Below are positions 9,194 through 15,354 of a stretch of DNA of 64,000 bases, in pieces. Under the pieces are notes generated by a model. It saw only the letters and a list, made by a program, of their open reading frames with translations, was not told where the DNA came from and made no database searches. This DNA comes from Gemmatimonadaceae bacterium (GTDB taxonomy: Bacteria; Gemmatimonadota; Gemmatimonadetes; Gemmatimonadales; Gemmatimonadaceae), in the NCBI GenBank assembly GCA_020852815.1, contig JADZAN010000025.1, positions 1 through 64,000 of the forward strand, given 5' to 3'. A program made the position numbers and the translations under genes. Every line of letters starts with the position of its first letter. Within the stretch, counting starts at the first letter, position 1.

Positions 9194-11851
9194 TCACGGG
9201 GCGGAACGGTCGGGGATGAGGGTGAGCGTCGCCACGACGGTGACCGTTGCGGCAGCGTCGTCCCGCGGCGTTTCGGTATCGCGCCCGGCGACCAACGGTG
9301 GAATGCCGAGCGGTAGGAGGGGTGGGCGCGTGGGCGTTTCCGAGAGGCGACGAAGGACGTGTTCGAGCCAGGCTTCGTCGTGCGCGATGGCCGCTGGCGT
9401 AGCGACGATAGCCGGCGCGGTGGCGCGCCCACCACGGCCCGGTGGCTGAACGACGGCTGCCGGCAGGTGGGGCGAGTTGCGAGCGATTGCGCCGAGTGAA
9501 GCGGCGAATGGGGCGGAGGCCGAGAGTTCGTCGAGGATCCGGTCGGCGCCGGCCCCGGTGTGGCGCCAGGCGAGTGCGCGCGCGGTGGCGGCGCGCGCGG
9601 CGACCTGCGAGCGTCTCGTGCGCGGGGCGCGGGCGACGGCCGTGGCGAGCGCCCGCAGGAGTCGACGGTGGGCGAGCGAGTCGTGCGCAATGTCGCCGCG
9701 CAGCTGCCGCCGTGCGGCTTCGGTTGCGCACCAGCCGAGAATGGCGCGGTCGGTAGAGCGGTCGATAGAGCGGTCGATAGAGCGGTCGGTGGCGCGCTCA
9801 ATGGCGGGTTCGATCGCGCGTTCGGTCTCGGATGCCGGTGGCCGGTTTCTGGAGCTTTTGCACTCGCTTGCAGCGCTAGCATGCGGAGCCCATGCAGCTG
9901 CAAGGTGTTCCAGCACCGCGCCCACGTCGTGTGGTGCATCGCTCGCGCCCGCGGGCGATGCGACGAGGAGACGCGCGTCGTGCGCGACGCGCACCAAGGC
10001 AAGTGTTCGCGGCGCGTCGAGACCGGGTACGGCGATCGGAGTGTCATCGTTCGTCACCCATGACGCACGTCCGACGGCGGCACGATCGATGGCTCGCAGC
10101 TTTGCGATGAGCGCGTGGCGTGCGGCTACGGGTGCGTGGTCGTCGCTGCCCGATGCCAGCGGCGCCCACGCTTCAGCACCGAGGAGAATGGTCGAGGCGC
10201 CGACGGTTCCCGCGGCGAGCTGCGCCTTTCGGGCCAGGACGCGCACGGCGCTGCCGAGTTCCTCGGCGTCAGCCGGGGGGAGGATGAGATGCGACGCGAT
10301 CGCGCCGTGCGCCGACCCGATGCGGCGCACGCGTCCCATGCGTTGCTCGAACCGGGCGACGGTCCAGGGGAGGTCGAGGTGCACGATGACTGATGCTGCG
10401 TGCAGGTTGACGCCCTCGCTCACGACATCGCTCGCCACGAGGACGTCGACGCGCGCGATGTCGTCGGTCCGTCGCCGGCGATCGCCGTCAGGCGCAAAGG
10501 CGGCCAGCAGCTCGGCGCGCGGGATGGCGCCGCTGGCAATGCAGGCCCCGCGTCCGGTGAGGAGGGCGACGCGCGCGTGGTCGCGCAGCGCGCGAAAGAC
10601 CGACTCGGCGGTCTCGGCGGAGTGCGTGAAGATCACGACCTGGCGATCGCGATGCGCGTCGAGGATGCGGCGGAGCGTGTCGACGCGCACGTGGTCGCGT
10701 GCGGCGTGCGTGCGCACGAGCGTTCGCAAGGCTCGGAGTGCATCGGCGTGCCGGCGGACCACGGCGTGCTGCGAGGCGATGTCGCCGCAAGGGGCGGCGG
10801 CGACCAACTCCGGAAAGGCGAGTTGCACGCTACCGTCGCCTTGGGGAGTCCAGGCGGCGAGGTCGCGGTGGGTGGGAAGACGCCCGGCGTCGAGCGCGTG
10901 CTCGATGGCGGTCGCGGTGGCCAGGCGTCGCCGGATGGCGGCGAGGAGTGCGGCGTCGCTGGAGCACCAGGCTCGCGCCAGCTGCAACGCGACGAGCGCG
11001 GTGGCCACGCCGCCATCGGATGGGGGGAGCGGGGGGGGCAGGGCGCGCATGGCGTCGAGCACAGCCGGTGCGCGAGGGAGCGCGTGACGCTGCACGGCGC
11101 CGAGCGCCGGGAGGTGCGTCCCCACGTCGTCCACGCGCCGCCGCACGATGAGGGCGCCGAGCGTGGCTGCGTCCAGCGAGGCGGCACCACCTCCCAGGAA
11201 GAGCGCCATCAGCGCGTCGAGGTCGCCGCGGCGATTGTGGACCGGCGTGGCGCTGAGGAGGAGGAGCCGCGCCCCCACCGCCAGCTGCGCGATGGCCTGG
11301 TAGCGGCGCGTGGCCGGCGAACGCGCGCGATGCGCTTCGTCGAGAATCACCAGTTCCCATCGCGCCGCGGGGGGGAGCCGACCGGCGCTGAGCTGTTCGT
11401 ATGACACCACCGTCACGGGAACCGCGCACCGCGCGCTCGCGTCGCGCCACATCTCCCGCACCGAAGCCGGCGCCACCACGAGGATGCGCGCCGATTCGCG
11501 CGCAACGGCAAGCGCGGTGTAGGTCTTCCCCAACCCCACCTCATCGGCGAGCAGCGCTCCCCCGTGACGTTGCAGGATCGCCCGAAGGCGCGCGGCGCCG
11601 GCTACTTGATGCGGGAGGAGCGTGATCTCGCCGAGTGCCGCGTCGCTCGCGGTCGACTCGTCCTCGAGCTGACGCAGGCAGTGGCGCACGAACGTGCGCA
11701 CGCGCGCCGGGACGGCGAGCGATCGCGCGGCGAGTGTCTCCCGCACGAGGCGCCGCAATGGTGATGGCCATTTCTCTGGCGACACTGGTGACGTCGGCGT
11801 CATTGGCGACGTTGGCGTCATTGGCGACGTTGGCGTCATCGCCACGTCCAC
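9194..11851 (-). CDS. SNF2/DrmD-like superfamily 2 helicase, partner of an N6-methyltransferase
   Basis: An 885-aa ATP-dependent DNA translocase. The N-terminus is a repeated MTPTSP tract (residues 5-22). The helicase core has Walker A LADEVGLGKT (about 101-110), Walker B ILDEAHRARS (about 170-178), motif III LLLLSATPVHN, and a C-terminal RecA lobe with VIFTHSAETAE, ASDVVSEGVNLH and FEQRMGRVRRIG. About 300 residues of unassigned C-terminal sequence follow, split by a 4-residue repeat tract (DRSIDRSIDRST). I see no nuclease motif. It overlaps the upstream methyltransferase by 16 bp, so the two are surely cotranscribed. SNF2 helicase/adenine methylase pairs occur in class 1 DISARM. Confidence 0.85.
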   Translation of the reverse strand: MDVAMTPTSPMTPTSPMTPTSPVSPEKWPSPLRRLVRETLAARSLAVPARVRTFVRHCLRQLEDESTASDAALGEITLLPHQVAGAARLRAILQRHGGALLADEVGLGKTYTALAVARESARILVVAPASVREMWRDASARCAVPVTVVSYEQLSAGRLPPAARWELVILDEAHRARSPATRRYQAIAQLAVGARLLLLSATPVHNRRGDLDALMALFLGGGAASLDAATLGALIVRRRVDDVGTHLPALGAVQRHALPRAPAVLDAMRALPPPLPPSDGGVATALVALQLARAWCSSDAALLAAIRRRLATATAIEHALDAGRLPTHRDLAAWTPQGDGSVQLAFPELVAAAPCGDIASQHAVVRRHADALRALRTLVRTHAARDHVRVDTLRRILDAHRDRQVVIFTHSAETAESVFRALRDHARVALLTGRGACIASGAIPRAELLAAFAPDGDRRRRTDDIARVDVLVASDVVSEGVNLHAASVIVHLDLPWTVARFEQRMGRVRRIGSAHGAIASHLILPPADAEELGSAVRVLARKAQLAAGTVGASTILLGAEAWAPLASGSDDHAPVAARHALIAKLRAIDRAAVGRASWVTNDDTPIAVPGLDAPRTLALVRVAHDARLLVASPAGASDAPHDVGAVLEHLAAAWAPHASAASECKSSRNRPPASETERAIEPAIERATDRSIDRSIDRSTDRAILGWCATEAARRQLRGDIAHDSLAHRRLLRALATAVARAPRTRRSQVAARAATARALAWRHTGAGADRILDELSASAPFAASLGAIARNSPHLPAAVVQPPGRGGRATAPAIVATPAAIAHDEAWLEHVLRRLSETPTRPPLLPLGIPPLVAGRDTETPRDDAAATVTVVATLTLIPDRSAP
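9755..9790. repeat. 12-bp tandem repeat in helicase C-terminal region
   Basis: Three copies of AGAGCGGTCGAT (last one ending GGT) at 9755-9766, 9767-9778 and 9779-9790, flanked by degenerate copies from about 9743 to 9838. On the coding strand this gives a run of four-residue units (ATDRSIDRSIDRSTDRA). The unit length preserves the frame. Confidence 0.85.
11790..11839. repeat. 18-bp tandem repeat covering the helicase start and methyltransferase stop
   Basis: Units of GACGTTGGCGTCATTGGC at 11790-11807 (one mismatch), 11808-11825 and a partial copy at 11826-11839. Translated on the minus strand each unit reads MTPTSP and supplies a possible in-frame ATG for the helicase. The methyltransferase stop codon (11836-11838) lies in the last partial copy. 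Confidence 0.85.

Positions 11852-15354: not shown

What the first reader, a model, noticed from the sequence alone, without database searches (positions are those of the whole stretch)
9194..15354. Two-gene SNF2 helicase plus N6-adenine methyltransferase module
Seen: an 885-aa helicase with intact motifs and a 1172-aa Eco57I-class methylase (motif I DPACGSGAF, motif IV NPPW), overlapping by 16 bp and flanked by unrelated genes. Known: DrmD (SNF2) and DrmMI (methylase) occur together in class 1 DISARM, and PglX-like methylases in BREX. Here DrmA, DrmB, DrmC, PglZ, and any nuclease are absent. Inference: a reduced or distinct phage-defence or epigenetic module in which the helicase C-terminal ~300 residues might supply an effector.
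Basis: partly seen in the sequence, partly recalled or inferred. Interest (0 to 1): 0.7.

Follow-up and report, generated by a model that had tools for sequence, protein, structure and literature searches.

The report
Core nuclease-less methylase–SNF2 helicase pair
Almost every sampled bacterium of this order carries, at one inherited chromosomal locus, a DNA-marking enzyme overlapping the gene of a DNA-remodelling motor; the pair looks like a mobile anti-phage restriction system that lost its DNA cutter and became a permanent, probably epigenetic, part of the genome.

Summary
In detail: an 885-aa SNF2 helicase and a 1172-aa Eco57I-class adenine methylase, both with intact motifs, overlap by 16 bp. 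The pair is not a typical phage-defence cargo. Of 69 sampled genomes of the window's family, 61 have both genes; of 46 genomes from the order's other sampled families, 38 do. They are usually single-copy, on the same strand, methylase first. The methylase tracks rpoB (r = 0.93; 25 of 31 supported splits shared; one rpoB split contradicted). Clean losses fall mostly in the smallest genomes, and a type I hsdR control is patchy. Target-recognition domains diverge about as fast as catalytic domains (gap 0.06), whereas in mobile relatives they diverge much faster (gap 0.25). Those relatives, on plasmids and putative viral contigs, carry an N-terminal PLD (NgoFVII-type) nuclease on the helicase; none was found in the Gemmatimonadota pairs. 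The DISARM marker DrmB is absent from this genome. Best reading: a domesticated, nuclease-less relative of an MTase + PLD-SNF2 restriction module, acting as a lineage-wide m6A marking system coupled to a DNA translocase. A stable non-cleaving antiviral barrier remains the main rival. The recognition motif and phenotype are unknown.

The parts
11836..15354 (-). Eco57I-class N6-adenine DNA methyltransferase, 1172 aa
   Evidence: Pfam Eco57I 3.5e-16; AF2 model pLDDT 88.6; VIA-align CamA 7rfk_A Z 29.3 / 2.8 A / 514 residues, M.BseCI Z 26.9, BrxX Z 27.4, MmeI Z 25.1
14866..15354 (-). MTase N-terminal alpha/beta domain (residues 1-163), where type IIG/MmeI enzymes keep their nuclease; no conserved acidic/lysine triad
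   Evidence: no invariant residue before L163, only L27 and G28 nearly invariant, among 76 sequences; secondary structure
14116..14142 (-). MTase motif I DPACGSGAF
   Evidence: D405, P406, G409, G411 invariant in 76 sequences
13369..13380 (-). MTase motif IV NPPW
   Evidence: N659, P660, P661, W662 invariant
11980..12765 (-). Target-recognition domain (TaqI_C/BseCI/CamA-like), residues ~864-1125, conserved across the order
   Evidence: BseCI hit 1.6e-6 at 959-1121; TRD identity tracks the catalytic domain
9194..11851 (-). SNF2-family helicase/translocase, 885 aa, no nuclease domain found
   Evidence: Pfam; AF2 model pLDDT 79; VIA-align INO80 8oo9_G Z 21.4 / 3.1 A / 378 residues, CSB, ZorD Z 19.9
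11522..11545 (-). Walker A DEVGLGKT
   Evidence: G106, G108, K109 invariant in 74 sequences
11330..11341 (-). Walker B DEAH
   Evidence: D171, E172 invariant; A173, H174 nearly so
10322..10345 (-). Helicase motif VI QRMGRVRR
   Evidence: Q503, R504, R507, R510 invariant
9197..10195 (-). Helicase C-terminal region (residues ~553-885), fast-evolving, last ~65 residues disordered; no nuclease signature
   Evidence: mean identity 0.20 for residues 546-785 across 59 genomes; pLDDT < 50 at 821-885
11836..11851 (-). 16-bp overlap of the two genes; the same overlap in at least 8 relatives, other short overlaps elsewhere
8465..9178 (-). HAD-family phosphatase, 15 bp downstream of the helicase, probably co-transcribed; a conserved neighbour, not a demonstrated part
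   Evidence: HAD_2 4.2e-40; adjacent in 17 of 47 family loci

Best explanation
The pair is a vertically inherited, near-core chromosomal module of Gemmatimonadales (the order is inferred from the titles of matching MAGs). It looks descended from, or sister to, a mobile two-gene restriction-type system: an Eco57I methylase plus an SNF2 helicase with an N-terminal PLD nuclease. No nuclease is detectable in the Gemmatimonadales pair, and its methylase specificity appears fixed. Shown by sequence: linkage, vertical inheritance, intact catalytic motifs in both proteins, no detectable nuclease motif, a recognition domain that is not diversifying, purifying selection. Inferred: the methylase puts N6-methyladenine at one order-wide, probably non-palindromic motif, and the co-produced SNF2 translocase works with it on the chromosome (clearing or remodelling DNA so that sites can be methylated, or acting on unmethylated DNA) as an epigenetic or genome-maintenance function rather than a cutting restriction system.
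For: Distribution: 61/69 family genomes and 38/46 genomes of the order's other families have both genes. Linked, same strand, MTase first in 94 of the 105 genomes with both; 10 of the other 11 have them on different contigs. MTase identity tracks rpoB r = 0.926; 25 of 31 supported MTase splits shared; one supported rpoB split contradicted. Control: type I hsdR over cut-off in 8/69 family genomes. TRD-versus-catalytic gap 0.058 +/- 0.043 (331 pairs) against 0.248 +/- 0.068 in mobile relatives (17 pairs) (MSA version). All 8 full-length mobile helicases scanned from putative viral contigs and 3 from plasmids have PLDc_2; the Gemmatimonadota helicases scanned do not, a HxKx4D-type pattern search of 79 gave a single match, in the C-terminal part of one, and a profile of the mobile N-termini finds none of them. 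dN/dS 0.12-0.51 for both genes. Closest MTase fold is CamA, a core orphan m6A enzyme (PMC8187626). Precedent: B. subtilis DnmA with its helicase neighbour YeeB methylates GACGAG, does not restrict transforming DNA, and affects gene expression (PMC7261158). G080 keeps the MTase at the same locus without the helicase.
Against: No methylation has been measured, so the motif and its constancy are inferred. The helicase is retained under purifying selection almost everywhere, so methylation alone is not the whole function. Most family members lacking both genes are small genomes, so the pair is dispensable. The helicase and TRD trees contradict about 10 supported rpoB splits each, though short fast-evolving alignments are noisy. 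A nuclease acting in trans was not excluded. Descent from a PLD-bearing ancestor is not rooted by a tree; the PLD-like remnant in family f9 helicases is only suggestive.
Confidence: 0.55

Rival explanations
1. A permanent non-cleaving antiviral or anti-plasmid barrier: the MTase marks self, and the SNF2 motor loads at unmethylated sites and blocks replication or transcription of incoming DNA (compare DISARM/BREX), fixed early in the order and kept with one specificity.
For: Homologues of both parts belong to defence families; mobile relatives look like restriction systems; the helicase is retained almost everywhere; DISARM DrmAB ATPase is stimulated more by unmethylated than by methylated DNA (PMC9142583).
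Against: Near-universal vertical presence, frozen TRD and a neighbourhood of metabolic and regulatory genes rather than a defence island are atypical for defence.
Confidence: 0.27
2. An active restriction system whose nuclease is encoded elsewhere and recruited by the helicase.
For: In D. radiophilus pRadio5 a related MTase and PLD-helicase are separated by other genes, so gene sets are loose; trans-encoded nucleases were not searched exhaustively.
Against: No conserved nuclease neighbour was recognised at the loci. G080 (methylase without helicase) shows the MTase is not obligatorily tied to the helicase; this speaks only weakly against the rival.
Confidence: 0.1
3. A degenerate or reduced class 1 DISARM (DrmD + DrmMI) or BREX fragment.
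For: DrmD and DrmMI profiles match (1.7e-26, 3.9e-28).
Against: NCBIfam DrmD 103 bits against a 610 cut-off, DpdE 119 against 500, PglX-2 48 against 400; DrmB marker absent from the own genome and from 61/69 family genomes; both genes intact and under selection.
Confidence: 0.03
4. Lineage-fixed selfish (addiction-like) remnant with no host function.
For: The mobile relatives are restriction-type; losses in small genomes are tolerated.
Against: Without a nuclease there is no addiction; purifying selection persists over order-level divergence.
Confidence: 0.05

Closest known systems
Mobile Eco57I MTase + PLD(HKD)-SNF2 helicase modules (PADLOC profiles C3a139 'HKD+Snf2' and REase_MTase_IIG PDLC03601) on plasmids and IMG/VR contigs
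   Same: Homologous MTase (same top PADLOC profile as in the two viral-contig MTases scanned) and homologous SNF2 core, adjacent and often overlapping genes
   Different: Mobile ones have an N-terminal PLD/NgoFVII nuclease, usually helicase-then-MTase order in the viral set, and rapidly diverging TRDs; the window's pair has no PLD domain, MTase-then-helicase order, conserved TRD, vertical inheritance
Bacillus subtilis DnmA (YeeA) - YeeB - YeeC
   Same: Nuclease-less MmeI-like N6-adenine MTase with a downstream helicase gene; methylates the chromosome without detectable restriction of transforming DNA (PMC7261158)
   Different: DnmA is an MmeI homologue (38% identity in that paper) and has a third gene annotated as endonuclease; homology of YeeB to this helicase was not tested here
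CamA of Clostridioides difficile
   Same: Closest solved fold (Z 29.3, 2.8 A over 514 residues, 17% identity); core orphan m6A enzyme of a lineage (PMC8187626)
   Different: About half the length, no N-terminal domain; described as an orphan enzyme; a shared fold does not show a shared motif
DISARM class 1 (DrmD + DrmMI)
   Same: SNF2 helicase plus adenine MTase
   Different: Far below DrmD cut-off; no DrmA/DrmB/DrmC recognised at the locus
BREX-related (BR) systems (DUF499 ATPase + N6-MTase + Swi2/Snf2 helicase; PMC12839542) and Hma
   Same: N6-MTase + SNF2 helicase; type 2 BR has an HKD-helicase fusion
   Different: No DUF499 ATPase recognised next to the pair; HmaA profile only 73 bits; Gemmatimonadota not mentioned in that paper

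Membership tests
Class 1 DISARM | DrmD above the curated cut-off | tested here: not met
   NF038317 103.3 bits against 610; NF038318 90.4 against 950
Class 1 DISARM | DrmB (DUF1998/MZB) with DrmA present | tested here: not met
   PF09369 absent from the own genome (G000) and matched in only 8/69 family genomes; DrmA not searched separately
BREX | PglX above cut-off | tested here: not met
   NF033451 48.2 bits against 400; others lower
BREX | PglZ and BrxC in the locus | tested here: inconclusive
   not among the 20 neighbouring ORFs scanned; no genome-wide search
Hma / BREX-related systems | DUF499-type ATPase encoded with MTase and SNF2 helicase | tested here: inconclusive
   no such gene among scanned window neighbours; not searched genome-wide
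Dpd (DpdE) | DpdE above cut-off | tested here: not met
   NF041062 119.2 bits against 500
Type IIG restriction-modification | PD-(D/E)xK (or other) nuclease fused to the MTase | tested here: not met
   no conserved acidic/lysine triad in residues 1-163 among 76 sequences; no Pfam nuclease
MTase + PLD-SNF2 restriction module | PLD/NgoFVII nuclease at the helicase N-terminus | tested here: not met
   no PLD Pfam hit, no N-terminal HKD motif, custom PLD-region HMM finds none of the 79 Gemmatimonadota helicases or L228
MTase + PLD-SNF2 restriction module | Adjacent Eco57I MTase and SNF2 helicase genes | tested here: met
Core (orphan-type) m6A methyltransferase | Near-universal, vertical, single-copy, no cognate nuclease | tested here: met
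   a trans nuclease cannot be excluded
Core (orphan-type) m6A methyltransferase | Demonstrated methylation of a fixed motif with regulatory effect | not testable with these tools
   needs methylome data and mutants

The most novel reading that the evidence does not exclude
An order-wide bacterial epigenetic system in which a fixed-specificity adenine methylase is paired with an SNF2 chromatin-remodeller-like translocase: a restriction system domesticated by nuclease loss, with the motor now remodelling the bacterial chromosome in a methylation-dependent way.
Probability: 0.35. Interest if true: 0.8.

Novelty: new variant of a known kind. Interest (0 to 1): 0.62.

Why it matters
Core, lineage-wide DNA methylases (Dam, CcrM, CamA; from general knowledge and PMC8187626) have been important regulators where studied; none was found in the literature searched here for Gemmatimonadota, an abundant soil phylum. 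The pair gives a natural comparison between a diversifying nuclease-bearing mobile system and a frozen nuclease-less chromosomal one, which makes domestication of a restriction system directly testable, and asks what a SNF2 motor does for a bacterial methylase.

Tried and rejected
The genome search with n = 400, and with the full-length MTase, failed; the MTase census therefore uses residues 1-500. A first rpoB comparison picked antisense ORFs for some genomes and gave spurious low correlation (R columns only); corrected. A conserved upstream 'gene' suggested by ORF clustering was not used, because clusters mix antisense ORFs; only named neighbours are cited. A sigma-54 activator as conserved neighbour was considered, but motif hits occurred in only four loci, so it was dropped. 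The PLD-like N-terminus of f9 helicases: custom HMM gave no hit; hhalign p 0.017 against at least 0.12 in 20 shuffles; suggestive only. No match to the MTase in phage records. Papers on a conserved methylase in Gemmatimonadota: none found. No structural match to the helicase C-terminal region was listed, but that part was not folded alone.

Full report
OBSERVATION. Pfam assigns Helicase_C / SNF2-rel_dom and Eco57I, and no nuclease in either protein. PADLOC and NCBIfam give weak, wide-ranging matches to DpdE, DrmD, BrxH, HmaA (helicase) and type IIG enzymes, DrmMI, PglX (methylase), all far below NCBIfam's cut-offs.

DISTRIBUTION. In 200 genomes drawn from the phylum plus the window's own, the helicase was found in 62 and the methylase in 63 of 69 genomes of the window's own family (61 have both), and in 39 and 41 of 46 genomes of the order's other sampled families (38 both); f9, another family of the class, has both in 4 of 4, f4 in 2-3 of 6. 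A few genomes gave two methylase matches, some of which are pieces of one gene. In 94 of the 105 genomes with both, the genes lie together on the same strand, methylase first; 10 of the other 11 have them on different contigs, and in G025 about 12 kb lies between them. The same 16-bp overlap, or other short overlaps, recur.

The five family genomes without either gene include four of the smallest sampled (1.8-2.4 Mb); the fifth, G169, is a 5.4-Mb assembly in 820 contigs. G170 (2.1 Mb) keeps only a 200-aa methylase fragment. The rank test of genome size (p = 0.006) ignores phylogeny. G080 (7.5 Mb) keeps the methylase at the same locus but no helicase was found; an ECF sigma gene follows directly. 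As a control, the type I restriction gene hsdR is over its cut-off in only 8 of the same 69 family genomes.

VERTICAL INHERITANCE. Over 59 genomes, methylase catalytic-domain identity follows rpoB identity with r = 0.926 (Spearman 0.889). Of 31 supported methylase splits, 25 are in the rpoB tree (0.05 expected with permuted labels), and one supported rpoB split is contradicted. The helicase (r = 0.83) and recognition-domain (r = 0.90) trees agree broadly but contradict about ten supported rpoB splits each. The downstream neighbours (HAD phosphatase, anti-sigma zinc finger, DUF4097 proteins) recur at the locus in about 28-30 of 47 family loci. Both genes are under purifying selection (dN/dS 0.12-0.51 in six pairs; some dS values are high).

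CATALYTIC STATE. Motif I and NPPW of the methylase, and Walker A, Walker B and motif VI of the helicase, are invariant or nearly so in 76 and 74 aligned sequences. The methylase N-terminal domain, where type IIG and MmeI enzymes carry their nuclease, has no conserved catalytic set. In the helicase, no residue after K542 is invariant; residues 546-785 average 20% identity and the last 65 are disordered in the model. The idea of a C-terminal effector therefore has no support, though that part was not folded alone.

STRUCTURE. AlphaFold2 models: helicase pLDDT 79, methylase 88.6. The methylase is closest to CamA of C. difficile (Z 29.3, 2.8 A, 514 residues), then BrxX, M.BseCI and MmeI. The helicase core matches INO80, CSB, other SNF2 remodellers and ZorD (Z about 20-21). 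Fold similarity shows neither motif nor function.

MOBILE RELATIVES. tblastn against plasmids and a profile-derived scan of IMG/VR find distant relatives of both proteins side by side. Of 55 viral-contig loci with a methylase relative, about two dozen also encode a helicase relative, many overlapping or abutting it. All eight full-length helicases scanned from these loci, and three from plasmids of Mycobacterium, Deinococcus and Halorussus, carry an N-terminal PLD domain (PLDc_2, many also RE_NgoFVII). One short viral-contig pair (L228, 33-39% identity, methylase first) lacks it. None of the Gemmatimonadota helicases scanned has it; the HKD pattern search of 79 gave one match, in the C-terminal part of one protein, and a profile built from the mobile N-termini finds none of them. 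The four f9 helicases have a ~200-aa N-terminal extension whose end weakly resembles the end of the PLD region (p 0.017; 20 shuffles gave 0.12 or more), which may be a remnant.

SPECIFICITY. In restriction systems the target-recognition domain usually diverges or is swapped faster than the catalytic domain (general knowledge). With pairwise alignments at catalytic identity 0.45-0.75, the recognition domain is only 0.058 +/- 0.043 less identical in Gemmatimonadota (331 pairs) but 0.248 +/- 0.068 in the mobile relatives (17 pairs) (alignment-based version 0.062 against 0.327). Pairs are not independent, so the p-value is not used as evidence; the size of the difference is. No recognition-domain swap was seen among 59 genomes (worst residual -0.16).

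INTERPRETATION. The simplest account is a restriction-type methylase + SNF2 motor without its nuclease that became a fixed chromosomal function in this order. B. subtilis DnmA, with a downstream helicase gene, is a precedent for a nuclease-less methylase that methylates the chromosome, does not restrict transforming DNA and affects expression (PMC7261158). That the Gemmatimonadales methylase marks one shared motif, and that the helicase assists or reads that mark, is inference. The main rival is a constant, non-cleaving antiviral barrier; DISARM, whose DrmAB ATPase is less stimulated by methylated DNA (PMC9142583), shows such sensing is possible. Reduced DISARM is unlikely: curated scores fail and the DrmB marker is absent from this genome and most relatives.

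LIMITS. No methylome, phenotype or rooted helicase tree; trans nucleases and DUF499/PglZ were not searched genome-wide; the census covers one genome per sampled species, many of them MAGs.

Noticed in passing
window 15476-16870 (+): ORF whose first ~80 residues match the middle of a sigma-54 activator domain (5.9e-18) followed by a DUF4956 protein: probably the remnant of an NtrC-type activator gene next to an intact DUF4956 gene that starts near 15794.
   Followed up: partly
MTase residues ~508-534 and ~790-853; helicase residues 4-22 and 683-702: Low-complexity peptide repeats (REGA, TTATTA/ATAAT-like, MTPTSP, RSID) inserted in otherwise conserved proteins; most are absent from most relatives and lie in low-confidence parts of the models.
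   Followed up: no
L083 (G025) ~6000-17500: About 11.6 kb of unrelated sequence lies between intact MTase and helicase genes, apparently a mobile insertion; both ORFs stay open.
   Followed up: no
   Followed up: partly
L228 4632-9129: Putative viral contig with a short-form MTase-helicase pair (986 and 520 aa, no PLD domain) in the same gene order as the window: a possible link between mobile and chromosomal forms.
   Followed up: partly
window 5721-9178 (-): HAD phosphatase, ECF sigma factor, zf-HC2 anti-sigma and DUF4097 genes downstream; HAD, zf-HC2 and DUF4097 relatives recur at this locus in many family members.
   Followed up: partly
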